Shown piece after piece: positions 48,719 to 63,115 of a DNA stretch of 64,000 bases. The notes under the pieces were generated by a model. The model ran no database searches. It worked only from the letters and a program-made list of their open reading frames with translations, and was not told the DNA's origin. Numbering within the stretch: the first letter of the stretch is position 1; the number at the start of each line of letters is the position of its first letter. The stretch is from Micromonospora sp. WMMD882. GTDB lineage: Bacteria > Actinomycetota > Actinomycetes > Mycobacteriales > Micromonosporaceae. The translations under genes were made by a program, and so were the position numbers. Location of the stretch: contig NZ_CP114903.1 of the NCBI RefSeq assembly GCF_027497255.1, forward strand, positions 4,216,001 through 4,280,000, given 5' to 3'.

Positions 48719-49933
48719 TCAGGCCAGCCAGCGGCGGACGTAGGCGCCGTCCGGGTCGTAGCGGGCGGCCTGGCGGTCCGGGTTGAAGCGACGGTACGGC
48801 TTGGTGTCGCTGCCGGTGCCGGCCACCCACTGCCAGTTGCCGGCGTTGTTCGCCACGTCCCCGTCGAGCAGCCAGCGTCCGAACACCGCCAGCCCGGCCC
48901 GCCAGTCCAGCCCGAGCTGTTTGGTCAGGTAGGAGGCGGTGATCAGCCGGGCCCGGTTGTGCATCCAACCCTCGGCGCGCAACTGCCGCATGCCGGCGTC
49001 GACGATCGGCACGCCGGTGCGGCCCTCGGTCCAGGCGGCCAGCGCGTCCGGGTCGTCCCGCCACGCCTCGGTGGCCCCGCGCCGGTAGGCGAGTCGGCCC
49101 ATCCCGGGGAACGCGGCGGTGGCCTGGTAGAAGAAGTCCCGCCAGCAGAGCTGCCGCACGAACGGGCCGGCGGTCGGGCCGGTCGGGTCACCGGCCCGGT
49201 TCGCCACGGCCAGCGGCGAGAGACAACCGAAGCGCAGGTACGGGCTGAGCCGGCTGGTGCCGTCGCCGGCCAGGTCGTCGTGCCGGTCGTCGTACCGGTC
49301 GAGGGTGGGCAGCCAACCGTCCATCCGGCGGCGGGCGACGCTCTCCCCGCCCGGGGCGGCGTCCGGTGACTCGCCTTTCGGCACGGCCGGCAGCCGGCCG
49401 ACGCGTACCCCGTCGGGGAGGGTGATCCGGTCGGGGGCGGCGAGTTCGGCGCGGCGGGCGACGCCGAGCCAGGCCCGGTGGTACGGGGTGAACACCCGGT
49501 AGTGGTCGCCGCCGCCGGTGGGGCGTACCGCGCCCGGGTCGATCACGGTGAGGCCGGGGAAGAGCCGCAGGCGCAGCCGGCGCCTGTCGCACTCGTCGCG
49601 GAGGCGGCGCTCCCGGCGGCGGGCGTAGCGGCTGACGTCGGCGGAGAGGCCGACGCCTTCGGCGTGCGTCTCATCGGCCAGCCGGATCGTCTCGGCGACC
49701 GGGTCGCCGTGCCGGACCACCAGGTCACCGCCGCGTTCGCGGAGCGCCGCGCGCAGGTCGGCGAGGCTCTGGTGGAGGAACCGGTCGCGGTTCGGGGAGC
49801 GTCCGGCCAGCGCCGGGTCGAGCACGTAGAGCGGGACCACCCGGTCGAACGCCGCGCAGGCGGTGGCGAGCGCCGGCTGGTCGTGCACCCGCAGGTCGCG
49901 GGTGAACAGCACGATCGCGGTACGGCCGGTCAC
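48719..49933 (-). CDS. phr: Deoxyribodipyrimidine photolyase (class I cryptochrome/photolyase family)
   Basis: 404 aa from GTG 49933, overlapping the crtB stop as GTGA. N-terminal antenna domain (VLFTRDLRVHDQPAL), then the helical FAD domain with LSPYLRFGCLSP, LCWRDFFYQ, TGVPIVDAGMRQL, GWMHNRARL and NNAGNWQWVAGTGSD. The Trp and Asn residues of the last motif belong to the FAD/CPD pocket. It repairs UV-made cyclobutane dimers using blue light. Co-transcription with crtB suggests a light-stress regulon. Confidence 0.93.
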   Translation of the reverse strand: MTGRTAIVLFTRDLRVHDQPALATACAAFDRVVPLYVLDPALAGRSPNRDRFLHQSLADLRAALRERGGDLVVRHGDPVAETIRLADETHAEGVGLSADVSRYARRRERRLRDECDRRRLRLRLFPGLTVIDPGAVRPTGGGDHYRVFTPYHRAWLGVARRAELAAPDRITLPDGVRVGRLPAVPKGESPDAAPGGESVARRRMDGWLPTLDRYDDRHDDLAGDGTSRLSPYLRFGCLSPLAVANRAGDPTGPTAGPFVRQLCWRDFFYQATAAFPGMGRLAYRRGATEAWRDDPDALAAWTEGRTGVPIVDAGMRQLRAEGWMHNRARLITASYLTKQLGLDWRAGLAVFGRWLLDGDVANNAGNWQWVAGTGSDTKPYRRFNPDRQAARYDPDGAYVRRWLA

Positions 49934-50850
49934 GTCGCCGGGGCGGGCGTCGGGCCGGGAACGTCCACCGGGGTGCCGGCCCGGGTGAGCAGCGCCCGGG
50001 TGGCGACCGCCAGCCGGCGGCGTTGCGGGACGACCGCCCGCCGGGCGAAGACGTCGTAGCCCTGGGCGGCCACCTCGTCGAGGATCCCGCCGTAGAGCGC
50101 GTACGCGGTCCGCATGCACGCCTGCGAGGCCGGCTGGAGCAGGACGATGCCGGGCGCGGCGGCCTCGTAGTGGGCCTGGGCGCGGCTGGTCTCGTACTCG
50201 ATCAGCTCGCGGATCTTCGGGGTGGCCCGGCCCCGCGCCCGCGCCTCGACCAGGTCCTCCCGGGTGACGTCGAACTTGGCCAGGTCGTCGTCGGGCAGGT
50301 AGGTGCGGCCCCGGTCGAGGTCCTCGGCGACGTCCCGGATGAAGTTGGTGAGCTGGAAGGCGAAACCCAACTGGCGGGCCGGTTCCCGGGCGGCGGCCGG
50401 GTCGGGGCTGCCCAGGATGGGCAGCATCATGGTGCCGATGACGGCGGCCGAGCCCTCCATGTAGTCGAGCAGGTCGTCATAGGTGGGGTAGGCGGTGACG
50501 GTGAGGTCCATCGCCATGCTGCGCAGGAACGCGGCGAAGTCGGCGCGGTCCAGGTCGAACACGGCGATGGTGTGCAGCACGGCCGGCAGCAGCGGGTCGT
50601 CGACGGGCGCGCCGTGCAGGCCGGCGAGGAACCGGCCGGACCACTCGTCGAGCCGGGCGGCGCGCTCGGTGGGCGGCAGGTCCTCGGTGCGGTCGACGAT
50701 CTCGTCGGCGTACCGGGTGAATCCATACAAAGCGTGAACATGCCGTCGTTTCCACGCGGGCAGCAGCCGGGTGGCGAGATAGTAGGTGCGGCCGTGCCGC
50801 TCGTGCAGCGCACGGCACCGGTCGTAGGCAGCGGCAAGGTCCGTGTCCAC
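49930..50850 (-). CDS. crtB: Phytoene synthase
   Basis: 306 aa from GTG 50850 with GAGGGAGAG upstream. Trans-isoprenyl diphosphate synthase fold with the two Asp-rich motifs DEIVD and DVAEDLDRGRTYLP, and YMEGSAAVIG between. It joins two geranylgeranyl diphosphates head to head to phytoene. Divergent from crtE with a 65-bp control region; followed by the photolyase in an overlapping arrangement. Confidence 0.93.
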   Translation of the reverse strand: MDTDLAAAYDRCRALHERHGRTYYLATRLLPAWKRRHVHALYGFTRYADEIVDRTEDLPPTERAARLDEWSGRFLAGLHGAPVDDPLLPAVLHTIAVFDLDRADFAAFLRSMAMDLTVTAYPTYDDLLDYMEGSAAVIGTMMLPILGSPDPAAAREPARQLGFAFQLTNFIRDVAEDLDRGRTYLPDDDLAKFDVTREDLVEARARGRATPKIRELIEYETSRAQAHYEAAAPGIVLLQPASQACMRTAYALYGGILDEVAAQGYDVFARRAVVPQRRRLAVATRALLTRAGTPVDVPGPTPAPAT

Positions 50851-50864
50851 CGGCTCTCCCTCGA

Positions 50865-50903
50865 AATCGACGCACCAATCGACGCAACTCGTAACCCTAG
50901 GGT
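50865..50903. promoter_or_regulatory. Tandem repeat and palindrome in the crtB/crtE promoter region
   Basis: AATCGACGCACC and AATCGACGCAAC form a 12-bp direct tandem repeat (50865-50888), followed by the palindrome ACCCTAGGGT (50894-50903) 12 bp before the crtE ATG. CarH-type regulators are known to bind tandem direct repeats in crt promoters, so this is the best operator candidate for the MerR/B12 protein at 54296. TAGGGT could also serve as a -10 box for crtE. Confidence 0.55.
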
Positions 50904-50915
50904 ACGCTCGGCCGC

Positions 50916-52070
50916 ATGGCCAACGACGCAGTTGCCGGCAATACGCTCCGCACCGCGCCGATCCGGCCGACCGGGGCGGACGATCCGGTGAACGCGGTGC
51001 TCACCGCCTACACGAGGGATTTCGTCCGGGCCGTCGAGGAGACGCTCGCCGGATTCCTCGACCGGGAGATCGACGCCCTGACGGAAATCGACGCGGGCAT
51101 GGGGGAGTTCGCCGCCACCGCCCGGGGCCTCGTGCTCACCGGCGGCAAACGCGTCCGTCCGACCTTCGCGTACTGGGGGTGGCGCGGCGTCGCCGGAACG
51201 GCGGCCGACCCGGCGCCGGTGCTGCCCGCGTTCTCCGCCCTGGAGCTGCTGCACACCTTCGCCCTGGTGCACGACGACGTGATGGACGCCTCCGCCACCC
51301 GGCGCGGCCGACCGACCGCGCACCGGGCCGTGGCCGACCAGCACCGGGCCGCCGGGCGACGCGGTGACGCCGACCGGTTCGGCGAGGCGGTGGCCGTTCT
51401 CCTCGGCGACCTCTGCCTGGTCTGGGCCGACCGGCTGCTCTCGCACGCCGGTCTGCCGCCGGCCCGGCTGGTGGAGACCCGGCGCTGCTACGACCAGATG
51501 CGGGTGGAGACCATCGCCGGGCAGTACCTCGACATGCTCGGCGAGAGCGACGCGGCGAACTGGTCACTGGACCGGGCGCTGCGGGTGACCCGGTACAAGA
51601 CCGCCAGCTACACGGTGCAGCACCCGCTGCTCTACGGGGCCTGCCTGGCCGGCGCCTCCTCCGACGCGCCGCTGGTCGCCGCGTACACCCGGTACGGGCT
51701 GGCGGTCGGTGAGGCGTTCCAGCTCTGCGACGACCTGCTCGGCGTCTACGGCGACCCCGCCGTCACCGGCAAACCGGCCGGGGACGACCTGCGCAGCGGC
51801 AAGCCGACGGTGCTGCTGATGCTGGCCCGGCAGCTCGCCACGCCGGCCCAGCGCGGGCGGCTCGACCGCACCGGCGACGACGTCGGCGCGGACGACGTGG
51901 CCGGGCTGGCCGAGCTGGTGGCCGCGACCGGCGCGGTCGAGCAGGTGCAGCGGATGATCGACGAGCGGGTGTCCGAGGCGCTGGCCGCGCTCGACGCCGC
52001 CCCGATCGACGAGCCGGCCCGCTCGGCGTTGGCCGGCCTCGCCGCCGTCACCACCCACCGGTGGGCATGA
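50916..52070 (+). CDS. crtE: Polyprenyl diphosphate synthase, probably geranylgeranyl type
   Basis: 384 aa, ATG 50916. First Asp-rich motif LVHDDVMD, second LCDDLLGVYGD, with GGKRVRP as the allylic substrate contact. Family length is about 350, the extra being N-terminal. Residues before the first Asp motif (ALELLHTFAL) have aromatic and small side chains compatible with a C20 product, but product length cannot be fixed from this. It supplies GGPP to CrtB. Confidence 0.88.
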   Translation: MANDAVAGNTLRTAPIRPTGADDPVNAVLTAYTRDFVRAVEETLAGFLDREIDALTEIDAGMGEFAATARGLVLTGGKRVRPTFAYWGWRGVAGTAADPAPVLPAFSALELLHTFALVHDDVMDASATRRGRPTAHRAVADQHRAAGRRGDADRFGEAVAVLLGDLCLVWADRLLSHAGLPPARLVETRRCYDQMRVETIAGQYLDMLGESDAANWSLDRALRVTRYKTASYTVQHPLLYGACLAGASSDAPLVAAYTRYGLAVGEAFQLCDDLLGVYGDPAVTGKPAGDDLRSGKPTVLLMLARQLATPAQRGRLDRTGDDVGADDVAGLAELVAATGAVEQVQRMIDERVSEALAALDAAPIDEPARSALAGLAAVTTHRWA

Positions 52071-52111
52071 TGAACGCTCTCTTCACGAGGAACACGGGAA
52101 AGGGGAACGGC

Positions 52112-53596
52112 GTGCGCACCGTGGACGGACGTACCGACCGTGTCGTCGTCGTCGGCGCGGGTCTCGGCGGCCTGGCCTGCGCGTTGCACCTGGCCGGCAG
52201 CGGCCGGCAGGTGACCGTGCTGGAGCGCGAGGCGGTGCCCGGGGGCCGGGCCGGCCGGCTCGCCGTCGACGGGTACGAGTTCGACACCGGCCCGACCGTG
52301 CTCACCATGCCGGAGCTGATCGCCGAGGCGCTCGGCGCGGTCGGCGAGGAGCTACGCGACTGGATGGAGCTGACCCCGCTCGACCCGGCGTACCGGGCGT
52401 ACTACCCGGACGGCTCGACGCTCGACGTGATCACCGACACCACCCGGATGGCCGCCGAGATCAGCCGGGTCTGCGGCCCCCGCGAGGCCGACGGGTACCT
52501 GCGCTTCGTCGACTACGCCCGCGGGCTGTGGCGGCTGGAACGGGCCGACTTCATCGAGCGCAACCTCGACGCCCCCACCGACCTGCTCACCGGCAACCTG
52601 CTGAAACTGTTGGCCGGCGGGGCGTTCCGCCGCCTGCAAACCAAGATCAACCAATTCTTCCGGGATCCCCGTACCCAGCGGATCTTCTCCTTCCAGGCCA
52701 TGTACGCCGGGCTCGCGCCGCACGACGCGCTGGCCATCTACGCGGTCATCGCGTACCTCGACTCGGTGGCCGGGGTCAGCTTCCCGCGCGGCGGCATCCA
52801 CGCCGTCTCCCGGGGGATGGCCGGCGCCGCCGAGAAGCACGGCGTCCAGATCCGGTACGGCACCACGGTGACCCGGGTCGAGACCGCCAACGGCCGGGCC
52901 ACCGGCGTGCTGACCGCCGACGGCGAGCGGATCCCGGCCGACGTGGTGGTGCTCAACCCGGACCTGCCGGTCGCCTACCGCGACCTGCTCCCCCCCACCC
53001 GGCAGCGCCGGCTCACCTACTCGCCGTCCTGCGTGGTGCTGCACGTCGGCTCCAAGCAGGGGTACTCGCAGATCGCCCACCACAACATCCACTTCGGTCG
53101 CAAGTGGAAGGGCACCTTCGACGAGGTGATCCGGCGCGGCGACCTGATGACCGACCCGTCGCTGCTGGTCACCAACCCGAGCCGGACCGACCCGTCGGTC
53201 GCGCCCGCCGGACGGCACACCTACTACGTGCTCGCCCCGGTGCCGAACCTCGACCGGGCCCCGTTCGACTGGCGCGGCGGCCTGGCCCGGCGTTACGCCG
53301 ACGAGCTGGTCGCCACCCTGGAGGAGCGCGGTTACGTCGGCTTCGCCGACGGCGTCGAGGTCCGCGAGATCGTCACCCCGGCCGAGTGGGCCGACCAGGG
53401 CATGGCCGCCGGCACCCCGTTCGCCTCGGCGCACAGCCTCTTCCAGACCGGGCCGTTCCGCCCGTCGAACCTGCACCGCACACTGTCCAACGTGGTTTTT
53501 GTAGGATCAGGCACCCAACCGGGGGTGGGGGTTCCCATGGTCCTCATCTCCGGCAAGCTCGCCGCCCACCGCGTCACCGGAGGTGCCCGCCCGTGA
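52112..53596 (+). CDS. crtI: Phytoene desaturase
   Basis: 494 aa from GTG 52112 because GGGAAAGGGGAA lies just upstream; ATG 52067, which overlaps the crtE stop, lacks an RBS. FAD-binding VVVVGAGLGGLACALHLAGSG, then GGRAGRLAVDGYEFDTGPT, and the C-terminal VGSGTQPGVGVPMVLISGKLAA signature of CrtI enzymes. It inserts double bonds into phytoene, giving lycopene or a related product. Overlaps the next gene (GTGA). Confidence 0.92.
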   Translation: MRTVDGRTDRVVVVGAGLGGLACALHLAGSGRQVTVLEREAVPGGRAGRLAVDGYEFDTGPTVLTMPELIAEALGAVGEELRDWMELTPLDPAYRAYYPDGSTLDVITDTTRMAAEISRVCGPREADGYLRFVDYARGLWRLERADFIERNLDAPTDLLTGNLLKLLAGGAFRRLQTKINQFFRDPRTQRIFSFQAMYAGLAPHDALAIYAVIAYLDSVAGVSFPRGGIHAVSRGMAGAAEKHGVQIRYGTTVTRVETANGRATGVLTADGERIPADVVVLNPDLPVAYRDLLPPTRQRRLTYSPSCVVLHVGSKQGYSQIAHHNIHFGRKWKGTFDEVIRRGDLMTDPSLLVTNPSRTDPSVAPAGRHTYYVLAPVPNLDRAPFDWRGGLARRYADELVATLEERGYVGFADGVEVREIVTPAEWADQGMAAGTPFASAHSLFQTGPFRPSNLHRTLSNVVFVGSGTQPGVGVPMVLISGKLAAHRVTGGARP

Positions 53597-54306
53597 CCTC
53601 CCGTGAGAGCCACCTGGTCGAGCCGGCCTCCCGTGAGGCGCACCTGGTCGAGCTGGTCGACGACGTCGGCCGGCCGCTCGGCGCGATCAGCGTCGCCGAG
53701 GCGCACCAGCCGCCGGGCCGGCTGCACCGGGCGTTCTCGGTGCTGCTGGTCGACCCGGCCGGTCGGGTGCTGCTGCAACGCCGGGCCGCCGCCAAGACCC
53801 GCTTCCCACTGCGCTGGGGCAACTCCTGCTGCGGCCACCCCGGGCCGGGCGAGTCGCTCACCGACGCCGCCAACAAGCGGCTGGCCGAGGAGCTCGGCGC
53901 CGGGCCGTACGACCTCACCGAGGTCGGCGTGTACGTCTACTACGCCGAGGACCCGGCCACCGGTCGGGTCGAGTTCGAGTACGACCACGTGCTGCGCGCC
54001 GAGGTGCCGGCCGACCTGCCGCTGCGCCCCGACGAGACGGAGGTCGCCGAGGTGCGTTGGGTGGACCCCGTCCTGCTGGAGGCGGATCTCGACGCCGACC
54101 CCCGCGCGTACGCCCCGTGGCTCGGTGGCGTGGTGAACCGCCTGCTGCGACCCGCCGGACCCGCCCCCGGCCGGGTCGGGCCCGCCACCGAACCCGCCGC
54201 CCGGCCCGCCACCGAACCCGCTGTCGGGGCCACCGGAGCCGAACCCGTCCCCGACCGCGCCGGCGTTCCGGCGGACGACGCGCCGGAGCGGCCGGGTGGC
54301 CGATGA
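53593..54306 (+). CDS. idi: Isopentenyl-diphosphate isomerase, type 1
   Basis: 237 aa from GTG 53593. Nudix-fold IDI-1 with RWGNSCCGHPGPGE (catalytic Cys) and RVEFEYDHVL (catalytic Glu region). The core ends near residue 185; about 50 further residues are a Pro/Ala/Thr-rich repeat tail (TEPAARPATEPAVG). It interconverts IPP and DMAPP to feed CrtE. Its end overlaps the regulator start by 11 bp. Confidence 0.9.
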   Translation: MTSRESHLVEPASREAHLVELVDDVGRPLGAISVAEAHQPPGRLHRAFSVLLVDPAGRVLLQRRAAAKTRFPLRWGNSCCGHPGPGESLTDAANKRLAEELGAGPYDLTEVGVYVYYAEDPATGRVEFEYDHVLRAEVPADLPLRPDETEVAEVRWVDPVLLEADLDADPRAYAPWLGGVVNRLLRPAGPAPGRVGPATEPAARPATEPAVGATGAEPVPDRAGVPADDAPERPGGR

Positions 54307-55228
54307 GGCGCTGAGCGCCGGAGCCGTCGCGCGCCGGCTCGGCGTCGCGGTCACCACGCTGCGTACCTGGCACCAACGTTACGGGCTCGGCCCCAGCGAG
54401 CACCTGCCCGGCCACCACCGCCGCTACACCCCGGCCGACCTGGCCCGGCTGGAGATCATGCGGCGGCTGACCGCCGAGGGGGTCACCCCGGCCGAGGCGG
54501 CCCGGTGGGCCCGCCAGTCACCGACCGAGGTGCTGCCCCCGCCCCGCCGGGGCGCCCCCGGCGTCCGGGACGGGGGCGGCGCGACCATCCCGGTCGGTCG
54601 GGCCGGACCGGCCGCCCGGGGCCTGGCCCGTGCCGCCATGCGGCTGGACCAGGCCGCCGTATGCCGGGTGATCGAGGACTCGATCGCCGCCTCCGGCGTC
54701 GTCGCCACCTGGGACGGTCTGCTGCGGCCGGTGCTCGTCGGCATCGGTGAGCGGCACGCCGCGACGTCCGGCCTGATCGACGTCGAGCATCTGGTCTCCC
54801 GGTGTGTGTCCGAGACGTTCGCGGCGGTCACCCGGCGCAACGCCGCCACCGGCCCGGCGCGCGTCCTGCTCTCCTGCGCCGACGAGGAACAGCACACCCT
54901 GCCGTTGGAGGCGCTCGCCGCCGCGCTGGCCGAGGCCGAGGTGGGCTACCGCATGCTGGGCGCGCGGGTGCCGGTGGCGGCGCTGGTGGAGGCCGTCGTC
55001 CGGACCGCCCCGGCGGTCGTGGTGGTCTGGGCCCAGATCCGGTCGACCGCCGAGCCGGCCCAACTCGCCGCGCTGCTCGCAGTGCCCCGCCGGCCGCTGC
55101 TGGTGCTCGCCGCCGGCCCCGGCTGGCGGGACGACGCGCTGCCGGCCGGCGTGGTCCGCCCGACGAGCCTGGCCGAGGCCGTCTCCCTCGCCCTGGCCCT
55201 CCAGATGCAGGTCAGAGACCCGTCCTGA
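54296..55228 (+). CDS. MerR-type regulator with B12-binding domain (CarH/LitR-like)
   Basis: 310 aa from GTG 54296. MerR DNA-binding domain at residues 7-75 (SAGAVARRLGVAVTTLRTWHQRYG). A helical bundle and a cobalamin-binding Rossmann domain follow. Against T. thermophilus CarH, Glu164 and His165 match E141/H142, and His200 (EEQHTLPLEAL) matches the lower ligand H177 at the same spacing. The W131 position is His154 and H132 is Ala155. CarH proteins bind adenosylcobalamin, tetramerise on DNA in the dark and fall off in light. Here it would repress the crt operon of which it is the last gene. Confidence 0.85.
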   Translation: MADEALSAGAVARRLGVAVTTLRTWHQRYGLGPSEHLPGHHRRYTPADLARLEIMRRLTAEGVTPAEAARWARQSPTEVLPPPRRGAPGVRDGGGATIPVGRAGPAARGLARAAMRLDQAAVCRVIEDSIAASGVVATWDGLLRPVLVGIGERHAATSGLIDVEHLVSRCVSETFAAVTRRNAATGPARVLLSCADEEQHTLPLEALAAALAEAEVGYRMLGARVPVAALVEAVVRTAPAVVVVWAQIRSTAEPAQLAALLAVPRRPLLVLAAGPGWRDDALPAGVVRPTSLAEAVSLALALQMQVRDPS

Positions 55229-56330: not shown

Positions 56331-56403
56331 GCCCTCATCGTCTAGCGGCCCAGGACGCCGCCCTTTCAAGGCGGTAGCACGGGTTCGAATCCCGTTGGGG
56401 GCA
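56331..56403 (+). tRNA. tRNA-Glu (TTC)
   Basis: 73 nt without encoded CCA. Acceptor GCCCTCA/TGGGGGC with one G-T pair, anticodon loop CTTTCAA (TTC) on a 5-bp stem, T arm with GGTTCGAATCC. First of three tRNA genes in a cluster. Confidence 0.95.
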
Positions 56404-56437
56404 CGATCCGGCGCAAGCCGGAGGCAGTAACGAGCTA

Positions 56438-56511
56438 GGTCCTGTGGAGCAGTTGGAGTGCTCGCCGCCCTGTCAAGGCGGAGGTCGCGGGTTCAAGTCC
56501 CGTCAGGACCG
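56438..56511 (+). tRNA. tRNA-Asp (GTC)
   Basis: 74 nt followed by an encoded CCA (56512-56514). Acceptor GGTCCTG/CAGGACC, anticodon stem CCGCC/GGCGG with loop CTGTCAA (GTC), T loop TTCAAGT. Confidence 0.95.
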
Positions 56512-56520
56512 CCAACGCTG

Positions 56521-56545
56521 ACGCCGCGTGCTTCTCGCGCGGCGT
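56521..56545 (+). terminator. Hairpin after tRNA-Asp
   Basis: ACGCCGCG (56521-56528) pairs with CGCGGCGT (56538-56545), followed by TCTG. Placed directly behind tRNA-Asp, so it likely ends the Glu-Asp transcript. Confidence 0.6.
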
Positions 56546-56614
56546 TCTGCGTAGGCGGGTAGTCGACCCGTCCGGCGGCACACGCGTCGCCGGGGGGTAA
56601 CATGACCCGGGTAC

Positions 56615-56688
56615 GGCCAGGTAGCTCAGTTGGTACGAGCGTCCGACTGAAAATCGGAAGGTCGGCGGTTCGACCCCGCCCCTGGCCA
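56615..56688 (+). tRNA. tRNA-Phe (GAA)
   Basis: 74 nt. Acceptor GGCCAGG/CCTGGCC, D arm AGCTCAGTTGG, anticodon loop CTGAAAA (GAA), T arm GGCGGTTCGACCCCGCC. CCA is not fully encoded. Third gene of the cluster. Confidence 0.95.
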
Positions 56689-56711
56689 CATAGCCTTTCG
56701 CCGGGCTACAG

Positions 56712-56990: not shown

Positions 56991-57506
56991 ATGGGAGAGA
57001 TCGCTGAGCCGGATGCCGTCCGTCAGGATGTCGACCGGTTCTCGCTCCGCAGCACTCTTCTCGTTCCCGCCTCCCCCGAGGAGGCATTCACCGGCTTCAC
57101 CGACCTGACCAACTGGTGGGTCGCCGAGTACACCTGGTCCGGGCCGGACTTCCTCACCGAGCTGGGCATCGAGCCCCGGGCCGGCGGCATGCTCTACGAG
57201 ATCGGGCCGCACGGCTTCCGTTCGGACTGGGGCCGCGTGCTCACCTGGGAGCCGCCCGGCCGCCTGGTCTTCATCTGGCAGATCGGCCCCGACCGGGTGC
57301 CCGTGCCGGACCCGTCCAAGGCCAGCGAGGTGGAGGTGCTGTTCCGGGCCGACGGCCCGGAACGGACCCGGGTGGAGGTCGAGCACCGGCACTTCGACCG
57401 GCACGGCAGCGCGGCGGAGGGCTACCGGCAGGCGTTGACCGCCGGCTGGCACGAGATGCTCACCCGCTACCTGCACTCGCTCCGCAGCCGCCCGCAGCCG
57501 GCCTGA
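56991..57506 (+). CDS. SRPBCC (AHSA1-like) domain protein
   Basis: 171 aa, ATG 56991. Typical pattern: STLLVPASPEEAFTGFTDLTNWW, then GGMLYEIGPHGFRSDWGRVLTWEPPGRLVFIWQI and a C-terminal helix after GWHEMLTRYLHSL. Binds an unknown hydrophobic ligand. Monocistronic. Confidence 0.85.
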   Translation: MGEIAEPDAVRQDVDRFSLRSTLLVPASPEEAFTGFTDLTNWWVAEYTWSGPDFLTELGIEPRAGGMLYEIGPHGFRSDWGRVLTWEPPGRLVFIWQIGPDRVPVPDPSKASEVEVLFRADGPERTRVEVEHRHFDRHGSAAEGYRQALTAGWHEMLTRYLHSLRSRPQPA

Positions 57507-57527
57507 TCCGGCCTGATCTCCGTCCAC

Positions 57528-57591
57528 GACCGGGCCGCGCCGGCTCACGGCCGGCCTGACCCCGCCCACGGCCGGCTGTGCCGGCCCGGTC
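57528..57591. terminator. Hairpin between convergent genes
   Basis: GACCGGGCCG (57528-57537) and CGGCCCGGTC (57582-57591) form a 10-bp stem around further CGGCCG-type pairings. It overlaps the last bases of the DUF2786 gene and follows the SRPBCC gene. Confidence 0.5.
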
Positions 57592-58503: not shown

Positions 58504-58953
58504 ATGTCGTCCCCGGTCGCTCGTCTGCTGGCCGCCGTCACGGCGATCGCGCTGATCACGATCCCCACCACCACCCAGGCCGCGCCGCCGCCGACCGTCG
58601 TCGGGCCGGAGCAGGCCACCGCCCCCGGGCAGAACCTCGGCGCGACCTCGACCTGCTACGGCACCACCAGCCGCTCCTACTTCCAGACCGGCGGCTGGGG
58701 CGGGCAGGCCGGCCCGTACCGGACGACCAGCCGGTGCGTCGACATCAACGTCCGCAACGCGAGCGCCTTCAGCACCCAGGCCTGCGTGATCTTCATCGAC
58801 CGAACCAGCAACTGCAACTACTGGACGTACCTGCCGGCGTACTCCGGCTGGACGGTCGTCGCGACCAACGTCAAGGACGGGGTCAACTTCAAGGTCCGCT
58901 TCTCGAACAACTACTACCAGTACGAGTCGCTGACCGCGTACCACGCCTACTGA
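58504..58953 (+). CDS. Small secreted protein, unknown family
   Basis: 149 aa, ATG 58504 behind GGTTGGAGAAACC. Signal peptide with cleavage near TTTQAAPP. The mature part of about 120 residues has four Cys residues (STCYGTTS, TSRCVDIN, QACVIF, SNCNYW), which could make two disulfides, and is rich in Tyr, Asn and Thr in alternating beta-like runs. Resembles small actinobacterial secreted beta-proteins; no enzyme motif. The 3' end overlaps the convergent gene by 7 bp. Confidence 0.8.
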   Translation: MSSPVARLLAAVTAIALITIPTTTQAAPPPTVVGPEQATAPGQNLGATSTCYGTTSRSYFQTGGWGGQAGPYRTTSRCVDINVRNASAFSTQACVIFIDRTSNCNYWTYLPAYSGWTVVATNVKDGVNFKVRFSNNYYQYESLTAYHAY

Positions 58954-59351
58954 GCGGTGGGCGGGCGGTCCGGCCCGTAGAGGGTGGCGACGGCCGAGCC
59001 GGCCAGGGTGAGCAGGCAGTCGGGCAGCAGCCCGTCGGCGATCGCCGCCCCGAACAGCGCCTCCCCGGTGTCCGGGTCGCGGTTGGCGTACGCGCTGAGG
59101 AAGCGGGCCACCCAGCGGGTGTCGTAGTTGGCCTGGTCGATGCCGGGGAAGTCCAGCGCGGCCGTGCCGGACGGCAGCGCGTCGCCGACCATCGTCGCGG
59201 CCAGGCACCAGGCGACCCCGTACGCCCCGGCCACGCCGGACCGGTCCACCACCGAGTCGAAGGTGTCCACCACCGCGTCGCCGTCCCCGGCCAGGGCCGA
59301 ACGGAGGACGGCTGCCGCGTCGTCGAACGTCTGCTGCGGTACGTCGGTCAC
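58947..59351 (-). CDS. Small hypothetical cytosolic protein
   Basis: 134 aa from GTG 59351 (in-frame upstream sequence lacks protein-like composition). Predicted helical with FDDAAAVLRSALAGDGDAVVDTFDSVVDR, then YGVAWCLAATMVG, ANYDTRWVARFLSAYANRD and ALFGAAIADGLLPDCLLTLAG. Repeated helix pairs suggest an alpha-helical scaffold. Family not recognised. Confidence 0.7.
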   Translation of the reverse strand: MTDVPQQTFDDAAAVLRSALAGDGDAVVDTFDSVVDRSGVAGAYGVAWCLAATMVGDALPSGTAALDFPGIDQANYDTRWVARFLSAYANRDPDTGEALFGAAIADGLLPDCLLTLAGSAVATLYGPDRPPTAQ

Positions 59352-59521: not shown

Positions 59522-60874
59522 ATGCTCGGATCACGCGGCTCGCGGATGGCCACGCTGGCCGCCTGCGCGGCGCTCCTGCTCACCACCGGGGCGTGCGGGA
59601 CGGACCAACAGCAGCCGGAAGAGGGCGACACCCACCAGGTGCGCCTCTACGGCACCGACGGCAACATGCTCAACACCTACCCGGGTGAGCTGAAGGACCG
59701 GGCCCACCTGGTCGACGGCATGAAGGGCACCACGCCGCTGACGCCGCTGCCGGAGGACTTCAAACGCCGGCTGCGGGCCGTCGACCCCGAGTTGAAGGAC
59801 TTCCTCTACGCGGCCGAGTCGTACGACGCGGTGCTGATCAGCGCGCTCGCCGCCCAGCTCGCCGGCCGTACCGCCCCGGCGGCCGTCGCGAAGCAGATCA
59901 ACGGCGTCACCAACGAGGGCCAACGCTGCGAGGACGCCGCCGGCTGCCTGGAGCTGGCCCGGGCCGGTCAGGACATCGAGTACCGCAGCGTCTCGATGAC
60001 CCGGGCCGGTTTCACCGACGCCGGTGAGCCGGCCACCGCCAGTTACGGCACCCTGCACTTCGACGACCAGCGGCTCAACGACGGCAAGACCGAGTTCGTG
60101 GGCGCCGGTGACGAGTCGGCGGCGAGCACCAAGGCCCCGCCGAAGGGCTTCCGGCAGCGCGGCAAGGTGCCGGCCAGCAGTGGCGCGCCGCTCGTCCTCG
60201 GTGGGCTGCTGCCCCGCACCGGCGCGCTCGCGCTGGCGTACCCGCCGCTGGCGGCCGGGGCCGCGCTGGCCGTACGGGAGATCAACGCCGCCGGCGGGGT
60301 GCTCGGCGAGCCGGTGGTCTGGCTCGACGGCGACGACGGCACCGCCCCGAACGTCGCGAAGGCCACCGTGGCGTCGCACCTCCGCGAGGGGGCGCACGTC
60401 ATCATCGGCGCCGGCGCGTCCGGCATCTCGATGGCCGTGCTGCCGGAGGTGGTGGCGGCCGGCCGGATCCTGTTCTCCCCGTCGAACACCGACTCCGCCC
60501 TGACCGAGGTGGACGACAAGGGCCTCTACTTCCGTACCGCGCCGCCGGACAGCCTCCAGGGGCGGGCGCTGGCCGACGTGATCCTGCGGGACGGCCCCCG
60601 CAAGGTGGCGCTGGTGGCCCGCAAGGACTCGTACGGCGAGGGCCTTCAGGGTTTCGTCCGCACCGAGCTGGAACGGGCCGGTCTCGGAGCCGACGCGGTC
60701 CGGCTGCTCACCTACGAGCCGCCGGCGGACGCCGACGCCCCGCCTGTCGACTTCAGCGCCGGCGCCCGCGAGATCAAGGAGTTCGGCGCGGACGCGGTGC
60801 TGCTCATCGGCTTCGCCGAGTCGGCGGCGGTGATCCTCGCCCTCGACGACGCGGACGTGCCGGTCCAGCCGTGA
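59522..60874 (+). CDS. Lipoprotein of the Leu/Ile/Val-binding (type I periplasmic) family, apparently circularly permuted
   Basis: 450 aa, ATG 59522 with GAGGGGG upstream; lipoprotein signal ending in TTGAC, Cys25. Residues 39-200 match the C-terminal module of ABC substrate-binding proteins of the LivJ type (LYGTDGNMLNTY, MKGTTPL, DPELKDFLYAAESYDAVLISALAAQLAG, CLELARAGQDIEYRSVS, GEPATASYGTLHF). After a linker (200-221), residues 222-450 match the N-terminal module (LVLGGLLPRTGALA, AVREINAAGGVLGEPVVWLD, IIGAGASGISMAVLPEV, GRILFSPSNTDSALT, GLYFRTAPPDSLQGRALA) and end at DDADVPVQP, exactly where the C-module normally starts. So the two halves are swapped. No permease or ATPase genes are near. 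Possibly a sensor or binding protein rather than a transporter part. Confidence 0.85.
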   Translation: MLGSRGSRMATLAACAALLLTTGACGTDQQQPEEGDTHQVRLYGTDGNMLNTYPGELKDRAHLVDGMKGTTPLTPLPEDFKRRLRAVDPELKDFLYAAESYDAVLISALAAQLAGRTAPAAVAKQINGVTNEGQRCEDAAGCLELARAGQDIEYRSVSMTRAGFTDAGEPATASYGTLHFDDQRLNDGKTEFVGAGDESAASTKAPPKGFRQRGKVPASSGAPLVLGGLLPRTGALALAYPPLAAGAALAVREINAAGGVLGEPVVWLDGDDGTAPNVAKATVASHLREGAHVIIGAGASGISMAVLPEVVAAGRILFSPSNTDSALTEVDDKGLYFRTAPPDSLQGRALADVILRDGPRKVALVARKDSYGEGLQGFVRTELERAGLGADAVRLLTYEPPADADAPPVDFSAGAREIKEFGADAVLLIGFAESAAVILALDDADVPVQP

Positions 60875-61887: not shown

Positions 61888-62745
61888 TCACTGTTTCACG
61901 CCGCCTTCCCAGTGGTAGAAGCCCTGGCCGGACTTCTTGCCCAGCCGGCCCTGGGCGACCATCTCCACCAGCAGCTCCGGCGGCGCGAACCGGTCGCCGT
62001 AGGCGGCCTGGAGGGTGCGGGCGATGTCGAGGCGGACGTCCAGTCCGACCAGGTCGGTCAGCTCCAGCGGCCCGACCGGATGCCGGTAGCCGAGCACCAT
62101 CGCCTTGTCGATGTCGGCCGGGGCGGCCACCCCGTCGGCGACCATCCGGATCGCCTCCAGCCCGAGCGTGACGCCGAGCCGGGAGGTGGCGAAGCCGGGC
62201 AGGTCGCGTACCACGACGGGATCCTTGCCCAGCCGGCGCGCGAGGGCGACGGCCGCGGTGGTGGTCTCCGTCGTGGTGGCCGGGCCGACCACCACCTCCA
62301 GCAGCGTCATCGCCCAGACCGGGTTGAAGAAGTGCAGCCCGAGGAAGCGTTCCGGGCTCGGCAGCCCCACCGCCAGCTCCCCGATGGAGATGCTGGAGGT
62401 GTTGCTGCCCAGCAGGGCGGGGCGCAGCGCGGCAGCCTCGGCGAGCACGCGCCGTTTCAGCTCCAGTCGCTCCGGCACCGCCTCGACCACCACCCCCGGC
62501 CCGGCGGGCACCTCGGCCAGCGAGGCGCGCAGCGTCAGCCGGTCACGGCCGGCCGCCGCCGCGTCGGCGTCGAGCCGGCCACGTCGGACCGCCCGGTCCC
62601 AGAGCGCCGCCAGCGCGGCCGGGGCCTCGGCGGCCCGACCCCGGTCCACCTCCACCAACTCGACGGCGTGGCCCGCGCCGGCCGCCACGTACGCGATGCC
62701 GAGCCCCATGGTGCCGGCCCCGACGACGACGAAACGATCGTTCAT
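61888..62745 (-). CDS. 3-hydroxyacyl-CoA dehydrogenase
   Basis: 285 aa, ATG 62745. NAD-binding VVVGAGTMGLGIAYVAAGAG, then SNTSSISIGELA, the catalytic His in GLHFFNPVWAM, and the C-terminal helical domain with DLPGFATSRLGVTLGLEAIRMV and GLDVRLDIARTL. Single-function short form (PaaH/FadB2 type). Oxidises 3-hydroxyacyl-CoA to 3-oxoacyl-CoA, the step after the hydratase downstream. Confidence 0.92.
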   Translation of the reverse strand: MNDRFVVVGAGTMGLGIAYVAAGAGHAVELVEVDRGRAAEAPAALAALWDRAVRRGRLDADAAAAGRDRLTLRASLAEVPAGPGVVVEAVPERLELKRRVLAEAAALRPALLGSNTSSISIGELAVGLPSPERFLGLHFFNPVWAMTLLEVVVGPATTTETTTAAVALARRLGKDPVVVRDLPGFATSRLGVTLGLEAIRMVADGVAAPADIDKAMVLGYRHPVGPLELTDLVGLDVRLDIARTLQAAYGDRFAPPELLVEMVAQGRLGKKSGQGFYHWEGGVKQ

Positions 62746-62836
62746 GTGCCGACCCTATGGCAGCTCCACGCGGACGGGCAGGCGTGGGGGCCGGCGGATC
62801 CGGGTACAGCGCCCCCAACCGAGGGAAGGACGATCG

Positions 62837-63115
62837 ATGAGCGAGACGACGGAGACGCCGGCGACGGTGGAGACCCGGGGCGACGAGCGGGTGGACCTGC
62901 TCCGCGCGGACACCAACAACGACGGGAAGACCGACGTCTGGGTGGTCGACACCGACGGTGACGGTCGGGCCGACCTGTTCCAGTTCGACACCGACGGCGA
63001 CGGCAAGGTCGACATCACCATGGTCGACATCGACGAGGACGGCACCCCGGACGAGGTGGTCGACGGCGACGGCGGCCTCCCACCCCAGCAGCTCCCCCCG
63101 ACGGTCCAGGTCTGA
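62837..63115 (+). CDS. Small acidic DxDxDG-repeat protein
   Basis: 92 aa, ATG 62837 with GGGAAGGA upstream. Four consecutive repeats of about 13 residues: DTNNDGKTDVW, DTDGDGRADLF, DTDGDGKVDIT, DIDEDGTPDEV, each with the Asp ladder of EF-hand/thrombospondin type 3/dockerin calcium loops. No signal peptide, so it would be cytosolic unless exported by another route. May buffer or sense Ca2+. Family assignment by motif only. Confidence 0.8.
   Translation: MSETTETPATVETRGDERVDLLRADTNNDGKTDVWVVDTDGDGRADLFQFDTDGDGKVDITMVDIDEDGTPDEVVDGDGGLPPQQLPPTVQV

What the first reader, a model, noticed from the sequence alone, without database searches (positions are those of the whole stretch)
59522..60874. 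Circularly permuted Leu/Ile/Val-type substrate-binding lipoprotein
Residues 39-200 align in order with the C-terminal module of LivJ-like binding proteins and 222-450 with the N-terminal module. The permuted ends join perfectly: the protein stops at VPVQP and begins (mature) with VRLYGTDGN, which are contiguous in normal members. The new N-terminus still has a lipoprotein signal. No transport genes are nearby, so it may be a stand-alone sensor or scavenger. I know of no described case of this exact kind.
Basis: partly seen in the sequence, partly recalled or inferred. Interest (0 to 1): 0.72.

Follow-up and report, generated by a model that had tools for sequence, protein, structure and literature searches.

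The report
Circularly permuted amino-acid-binding lipoprotein
A bacterial surface protein of the kind that normally catches amino acids for an importer is built here with its two halves in swapped order, and this swap seems to have arisen more than once in the same protein family and been kept across many actinobacteria.

Summary
Confirmed. The 450-aa protein at 59522-60874 is a natural circular permutant of a Peripla_BP_6 (LivJ-type) substrate-binding lipoprotein. A profile built only from normal-order relatives matches it in two adjoining pieces in swapped order; rotation fuses them into one 377.8-bit match, and shuffling the front half removes the gain. AlphaFold2 gives one confident two-lobed fold (pLDDT 90.4), its elements in the same cyclic order as in a modelled normal-order relative.

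It is no assembly artefact: 99 of 150 sampled genomes of the family have it. Two other families of the order share the cut. Other Actinomycetota have a second permuted form cut about 24 positions later; 336 permuted entries (298 distinct) fall into two separate cut classes. Normal-order relatives separate the classes on the tree, so at least two permutations is the best reading (AU p 0.015 and 0.044; all permuted forms as one clade, p about 0.001).

Relatives of either order mostly sit beside livFGMH; the Micromonosporaceae permuted copies do not (no cognate match in 63 stretches from about 55 places). Permuted type I binding proteins were known (TpMglB-2), but in another family with another cut.

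The parts
59522..60874 (+). Gene for the permuted substrate-binding lipoprotein (450 aa plus stop)
   Evidence: Pfam; homologues
59522..59596 (+). Signal peptide and lipobox, ending at Cys25
   Evidence: Sequence; Cys25 invariant in 64 permuted homologues; that this is a lipobox rests on the recalled motif
59630..60109 (+). Residues 37-196: the part that is C-terminal in normal-order relatives (profile 221-365 matches residues 37-184)
   Evidence: secondary structure
59639..59653 (+). Residues 40-44: new first strand, next to Asp46 (aligned with LivJ Glu226)
   Evidence: Model; Asp in 28 of 28 and 13 of 13 permuted and 46 of 47 normal rows
60110..60184 (+). Residues 197-221: linker joining the old C-terminus to the old N-terminus
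   Evidence: Junction comparison; model
60185..60871 (+). Residues 222-450: the part that is N-terminal in normal-order relatives (profile 4-219 matches residues 224-446)
58947..59351 (-). Divergent small gene of unknown function (about 134 aa, start at 59351 assumed), next to the permuted gene in every sampled genome that has both
   Evidence: 97 of 97 genomes, within 1.8 kb; no Pfam match above cut-off, no NCBIfam or PDB match

Best explanation
The gene encodes a complete type I (Venus-flytrap) substrate-binding lipoprotein of the LivJ/HAAT kind whose chain is circularly permuted. SHOWN by computation: the chain starts at a strand that lies at profile position 221 of the normal protein, runs to the old C-terminus, passes a new linker of about 25 residues, and then runs from the old N-terminus to profile position 219. 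The predicted fold is one two-lobed unit like that of a normal relative, and residues aligned with the amino-acid pocket of LivJ are kept although the parts of the chain that supply them have changed order. INFERRED: it binds an amino acid or close analogue between the lobes. INFERRED from homology: the lipid tether now hangs from the C-terminal lobe, not the N-terminal lobe, so the protein faces the membrane differently. INFERRED: this permuted form arose once, from a normal-order binding protein that served a livFGMH importer; a second form with another cut arose separately elsewhere in Actinomycetota. In Micromonosporaceae the gene lost its importer neighbours; most likely it now feeds a paralogous Liv importer or acts as an orphan receptor.
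For: Profile from 43 normal-order relatives only: two adjoining pieces, fused by rotation, gain lost on shuffling. AlphaFold2 of the permuted protein, pLDDT 90.4 and pTM 0.86; of a normal Rhodococcoides relative, 87.7 and 0.83; element lists agree in cyclic order apart from one short helix and one helix split in two. Foldseek covers 229 columns of a LivJ-like chain with the permuted model (4n0q_B, TMt 0.53) and 378 with the normal one (4n0q_A, TMt 0.77). Residues aligned with LivJ S79, T102, Y150, E226 are S, T, Y, D in 41 of 41 permuted rows (LivJ roles recalled). Cut classes: 210 entries at profile 218-225 and 126 at 242-244, none between, among 336 permuted of 477 examined; 186 and 112 distinct. 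Tree: this cut class one group 98/89, sister to normal-order Rhodococcus-type proteins 100/98. AU tests. Importer linkage.
Against: No ligand, structure or expression data. Rotation did not fuse the two pieces for P0124 and L194. Separate origins of the two cut classes rest on borderline AU values (0.0146, 0.0443), with groups tested after a first tree had been seen. In the tree of the N-module alone this cut class is not held together (2 changes), and its support was only 93/58 in the second tree. Splitting the class between Micromonosporaceae and the other families is not rejected (p 0.23 and 0.374; 0.321). The lobe to which the tether is attached is read from homology and recalled LivJ lobe boundaries, not measured on coordinates.
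Confidence: 0.8

Rival explanations
1. One single permutation lies behind all permuted members; one lineage later shifted its ends by about 24 residues, and normal-order Rhodococcus-type proteins regained the old order or sit wrongly on the tree.
For: AU values against one clade of this class plus the main second class are only 0.0146 and 0.0443. Both classes occur beside the same kind of importer cluster.
Against: The two cut classes do not overlap, and no member carrying the strand at both ends was found: one search flagged 12 overlaps among 336 entries, and all 12 lack the DGN strand motif before the front module. Holding all permuted forms together is rejected (p 0.00106, 0.000798). Rhodococcus-type normals are sister to this class with 100/98.
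Confidence: 0.2
2. Assembly error, or a chance fusion of two unrelated binding-protein fragments.
For: None found; only L071 is broken, into two ORFs in the same order.
Against: Same order in 99 of 150 family genomes and 240 of 240 proteins; the two pieces match adjoining, non-overlapping parts of one profile; one confident fold.
Confidence: 0.01
3. In Micromonosporaceae the protein is an orphan receptor that signals or scavenges on its own or with the divergent small protein, not a feeder of an importer.
For: No cognate livFGMH match near it in 63 stretches from about 55 places; the cognate LivF orthologue (71-72% identity) is found in 3 of 16 genomes, and those three also have a paralogue of the partial-match type (shown to be normal-order for G047 and G015; G064's was not fetched); divergent small gene in 97 of 97 genomes that have both.
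Against: Paralogous permeases are plentiful (16 PF02653 matches in the window genome), and orphan binding proteins often feed them (recalled). The small gene also occurs in 20 genomes without a listed permuted gene, so the link may be shared descent of a locus.
Confidence: 0.35
4. In Micromonosporaceae the protein still delivers its ligand to a paralogous LivHMGF importer encoded elsewhere.
For: Pocket residues kept; permuted relatives in other families sit beside livFGMH (9 of 9 loci); paralogous permeases and ATPases in the genome.
Against: No genetic link to any importer found; a long stem branch (0.62) separates Micromonosporaceae from the importer-linked permuted proteins, which suggests a changed role.
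Confidence: 0.45

Closest known systems
LivJ / Leu-Ile-Val-binding proteins (Peripla_BP_6, PF13458; e.g. PDB 4n0q, 3ipc, 1usg)
   Same: Family by Pfam and PDB sequence search; fold of both lobes; aligned pocket residues
   Different: Chain order is permuted, with the ends at profile position 219/221 of the normal order; in Micromonosporaceae no cognate livHMGF beside it
TpMglB-2 (Tp0684) and its 'Type Ic / Cluster Bc' subclass (PMC4990184)
   Same: Naturally permuted type I binding lipoprotein with many homologues; precedent for the kind of thing
   Different: Glucose-binding MglB relative; its cut lies in the N lobe between strands 3 and 4 and adds a fourth hinge crossing (passages seen); ours is PF13458 and cut elsewhere
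Glycine-betaine-, molybdate-binding proteins and CysB (circular-permutation family of CPSARST, PMC2395249)
   Same: Binding proteins related to each other by circular permutation
   Different: Other binding proteins, under 24% identity, related by structure (passages seen); here both orders occur among much closer relatives (41-51% per module between the window protein and L099, up to 68% between L099 and f90 permuted proteins)
Normal-order Rhodococcus / Rhodococcoides binding protein beside livFGMH (L099, P0243)
   Same: Nearest normal-order relatives on the tree; same profile, pocket residues and cysteines
   Different: Normal order; importer genes next door

Membership tests
Peripla_BP_6 / LivJ-type (HAAT) type I substrate-binding protein | Sequence match above the Pfam gathering score | tested here: met
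   PF13458, 102 bits against cut-off 31.7; 114.6 bits when rotated
Peripla_BP_6 / LivJ-type (HAAT) type I substrate-binding protein | Both lobes of the type I fold present | tested here: met
Peripla_BP_6 / LivJ-type (HAAT) type I substrate-binding protein | Normal linear order of the two modules | tested here: not met
Peripla_BP_6 / LivJ-type (HAAT) type I substrate-binding protein | Amino-acid pocket residues (LivJ S79, T102, Y150, E226; roles recalled) | tested here: met
   S300, T323, Y371, D46 in 41 of 41 permuted rows (Glu replaced by Asp)
Peripla_BP_6 / LivJ-type (HAAT) type I substrate-binding protein | Encoded with LivHMGF importer genes | tested here: not met
   Micromonosporaceae permuted: no cognate match in 63 stretches, about 55 distinct places (2 weak ABC-ATPase matches); other permuted 9 of 9; normal 17 of 18 stretches, 16 of 17 places
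Peripla_BP_6 / LivJ-type (HAAT) type I substrate-binding protein | Binds an amino acid and closes on it | not testable with these tools
   Needs purified protein
Type Ic / Cluster Bc (TpMglB-2-like permuted binding proteins) | Natural circular permutation of a type I binding lipoprotein | tested here: met
   definition from PMC4990184 (passages)
Type Ic / Cluster Bc (TpMglB-2-like permuted binding proteins) | Cut in the N lobe so that its first three strands come last | tested here: not met
   Here the normal N-terminal 219 or so profile positions come last
Type Ic / Cluster Bc (TpMglB-2-like permuted binding proteins) | Sequence homology to MglB sugar-binding proteins | tested here: inconclusive
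   No MglB-type Pfam family among the hits up to E 1 (that MglB belongs to another Pfam family is recalled); no direct comparison with TpMglB-2 was made

The most novel reading that the evidence does not exclude
One binding-protein family of a single importer was circularly permuted at least twice, possibly three times, in Actinomycetota at two nearby points. The permuted forms replaced the normal one beside the same importer, so chain order is freely exchangeable there. In Micromonosporaceae the permuted, differently tethered form was cut loose from the importer and became a conserved orphan receptor paired with a new small divergent gene.
Probability: 0.4. Interest if true: 0.78.

Novelty: new variant of a known kind. 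Interest (0 to 1): 0.62.

Why it matters
Circular permutation of binding proteins is used in biosensor design. Here nature offers close pairs of normal and permuted forms (module identities of about 40-68%), with two cut points, in one family and often beside the same kind of importer. That makes it directly testable whether chain order or tether position matters for ligand binding, lobe closure and hand-over to an ABC importer, and whether permutation arises repeatedly. It also warns annotators: the named hits are called 'ABC transporter substrate-binding protein' or the like, and to Pfam the window protein looks like a truncated match.

Tried and rejected
Misassembly: rejected (same order in many genomes). 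Both halves matching the same module: rejected (adjoining, non-overlapping profile ranges). Search of the front half alone for a significant family or PDB match: nothing significant, although it scores 144.2 bits against the family profile. Search for duplication intermediates with the strand at both ends: one search flagged 12 overlaps, but all 12 lack the DGN strand motif before the front module, so no intermediate. Two proteins of 729 and 734 aa (P0122, P0143) looked like duplications, but the extra length lies before the lipoprotein signal. Trees of each half alone are weak (212 and 123 columns): the N-module tree splits this cut class, the C-module tree does not. Third origin (L093): holding all of the second class together is not rejected (p 0.0525, 0.148), so I do not claim it. 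VIA-align rows covered mainly residues 220-450, as expected for a sequential aligner; nothing is concluded from families not listed. Functional link to the divergent gene: adjacency 97 of 97, but the gene also occurs in 20 genomes without a listed permuted gene, so not claimed. Families f87 and f90 are unnamed by the tool and I did not identify them. Rows dropped before counts: one search thinned 242 rotated proteins to 74 by identity; one search left out 15 listed near-copies or paralogues and L170 (a copy of L099); one search left out four long-branch rows (L081, L088, L091, L119) and eight near-copies.

Full report
WHAT IS THERE. The gene at 59522-60874 (+) encodes 450 aa. Pfam sees only residues 225-445, as profile positions 3-214 of 343 of Peripla_BP_6; NCBIfam's best hit is a LivJ-type subfamily, far under its cut-off, on residues 243-388. 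Rotating the protein lets PF13458 run to position 312 with 114.6 instead of 102 bits and lets 4n0q (a binding protein solved with leucine) align over most of its length. A profile built from 43 normal-order relatives, with no permuted protein in it, matches the native chain in two pieces: profile 4-219 on residues 224-446 (231.1 bits) and profile 221-365 on residues 37-184 (144.2 bits). Rotated, the two become one match of 377.8 bits. Shuffling residues 38-205 twenty times before rotating brings the score to 231.7 on average (maximum 233.6). Of the four permuted proteins rotated there, P0123 also fused (516.8 bits), while P0124 and L194 kept two pieces (366.1 and 168.7; 338.7 and 176.7 bits), their best rotations scoring only 368.5 and 339.1; I think their long linkers split the match, which I did not test.

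HOW COMMON. The best 120 homologues match 96-100% of the query; a second search with six outside members scored 7093 proteins at E 1e-60 or better among 7999 candidates, of which the best 120 were listed. All 240 listed are permuted; the order of the unlisted ones is unknown. Among 150 family genomes, 123 have any match at E 1e-20; from the rows printed, 99 genomes carry 112 full-length or nearly full-length permuted genes. Nine partial matches of that family that I fetched (L073-L081) are normal-order. Permuted members with the same cut also occur in two other families of the order (f90 and f87, unnamed by the tool).

TWO CUT POINTS. Of 477 protein entries examined, 141 are normal-order and 336 permuted. 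Of these, 210 have the normal N-terminal module ending at profile 218-225 (ours) and 126 at 242-244; none lie between. Some proteins are in twice: by their last 250 residues 186 and 112 are distinct. The second class begins after the YGxDGNMGN segment and ends with it; named hits include Ilumatobacteraceae, Microthrixaceae and Salsipaludibacter albus. Within the first class the new linker looks alike between families: GDESAASTKAPP in the window protein, GDESKASTATVQAPP in the f87 protein L209, GDEANATTDEGPA in f90 and GNEKNATTEQPV in L087 (compared by eye). This suggests one origin for that class.

HOW MANY PERMUTATIONS. Proteins were rotated into normal order and trees built. First tree (74 rows): this class 100/100, sister to a normal-order Rhodococcus-type protein (L099). 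Second (88 rows): this class 93/58. Third (86 rows, one more family, long-branch rows dropped): this class 98/89, sister to normal-order Rhodococcus-type proteins 100/98; the main second class 100/98; L093 elsewhere. AU tests: this class plus the main second class as one clade, p 0.0146 and 0.0443; all permuted as one clade, 0.00106 and 0.000798; all of the second class as one clade, 0.0525 and 0.148; trees that split this class, 0.23 and 0.374 and 0.321. At least two origins is the best reading, at borderline support; three are possible. Half trees are weak, and the N-module tree does not hold this class together.

NEIGHBOURS AND FUNCTION. In other families the binding protein, whatever its order, mostly lies by a livFGMH cluster, usually pointing towards it. 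In f90, PF02653 permeases lie within about 6 kb in the six genomes checked, and the cluster holds ABC ATPases and permeases of the LivF, G, M, H kinds with an ANTAR response regulator on the other side (Pfam). tblastn of the f90 LivFGMH proteins matches 3 of 3 f90 loci, 6 of 6 second-class loci (in L121, which ends at 9.6 kb, only LivH well), 10 of 10 normal Micromonosporaceae stretches (9 places; L073 and L133 are one) and 7 of 8 other normal loci. It finds no cognate match in 63 permuted Micromonosporaceae stretches of 8-21 kb. These stand for about 55 places, since several genomes are in twice and the window genome gave two flanking stretches; two of them (L065, L087) give only 26-33% ATPase matches. 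The orthologous LivF (71-72%) is in 3 of 16 Micromonosporaceae genomes searched; in the other 13, the window's included, the best match is 38-46%. Those three (G047, G064, G015) also show a partial-type match, which is normal-order in the two fetched (G047, G015). So in Micromonosporaceae the permuted protein lacks its ancestral importer neighbours, and in those 13 genomes no close orthologue of that LivF was found. The protein keeps Ser300, Thr323, Tyr371 and Asp46, aligned with LivJ Ser79, Thr102, Tyr150 and Glu226, in 41 of 41 permuted rows, and two cysteines (136, 142) in 88 of 88 rows (LivJ roles recalled). An amino-acid-like ligand is therefore likely; the ligand itself is unknown.

A NEW PARTNER? 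A gene of about 134 aa, 58947-59351 (-), lies divergently beside the permuted gene in 97 of 97 genomes that have both (median gap 174 bp, largest 1808); two genomes have only the permuted gene, one of them (G059) at a contig end, and 20 only the small gene among the rows listed. It has no Pfam match above cut-off and no NCBIfam or PDB match. Of 30 loci it is found in 26. In the nine longest of those loci (L134-L140, L207, L208) it is kept in 8, against 4 for the enoyl-CoA hydratase and 5 for the hydroxyacyl-CoA dehydrogenase. This hints at, but does not show, a functional pair.

WHAT IS KNOWN. TpMglB-2 of Treponema pallidum is a permuted type I binding lipoprotein that binds glucose and changes shape; its authors named the subclass Type Ic / Cluster Bc and suggested that tethering might explain the topology (PMC4990184, passages). 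Its cut is in the N lobe. CPSARST reported betaine- and molybdate-binding proteins and CysB as a permutation family at under 24% identity (PMC2395249, passages). The general models, duplication and fission-fusion, are in PMC3320104 (passages). A survey of binding proteins does not use the word stem 'permut' in its main text (PMC9602780). The listings of searches (25 of 287 shown; 21 of 21; 20 of 48; 7 of 7; 17 of 17) showed no report of permuted LivJ-type proteins; most subscription papers are not held, so this is no proof of absence in print.

VERDICT. It is a new variant of a known kind: a permuted type I binding protein in a new family, with new cuts, in both orders among close relatives, and probably arisen more than once.

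Noticed in passing
58947-59351 (-): Gene of about 134 aa without a Pfam match above cut-off and without NCBIfam or PDB match, divergent from the permuted gene in 97 of 97 genomes with both, and also listed in 20 genomes without it.
   Followed up: partly
about 62837-63115 (+): Short ORF tail with repeated DTDGDGK/R-type Asp-rich motifs resembling calcium-binding repeats (by eye); its host frame is 62105-63115.
   Followed up: no
48719-54306: ORFs that look, by eye, like carotenoid/isoprenoid genes (phytoene-synthase-like, polyprenyl-synthase-like, desaturase-like, IPP-isomerase-like) with a photolyase-like one; not scanned. A MerR/B12-binding regulator follows at 54296-55228 (Pfam).
   Followed up: no
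56331-56689 (+) and 57489-57585 (-): tRNA-Glu, tRNA-Asp and tRNA-Phe in a row and a tRNA-His on the other strand.
   Followed up: no
L200:4302-4922 (+); matches in L201, L206, L133, L202, L127, L128, L203, L132: A response regulator with an ANTAR domain lies beside the livFGMH and binding-protein cluster in permuted and normal loci alike.
   Followed up: partly
L071:2641-3989 (+): In Micromonospora sp. ATA32 the permuted gene is split into two ORFs (decay or sequencing error).
   Followed up: no
G018:C22, G052:C5, G072:C10, G110:C27 and others: Several Micromonosporaceae genomes carry a second permuted copy that is not beside the small divergent gene.
   Followed up: no
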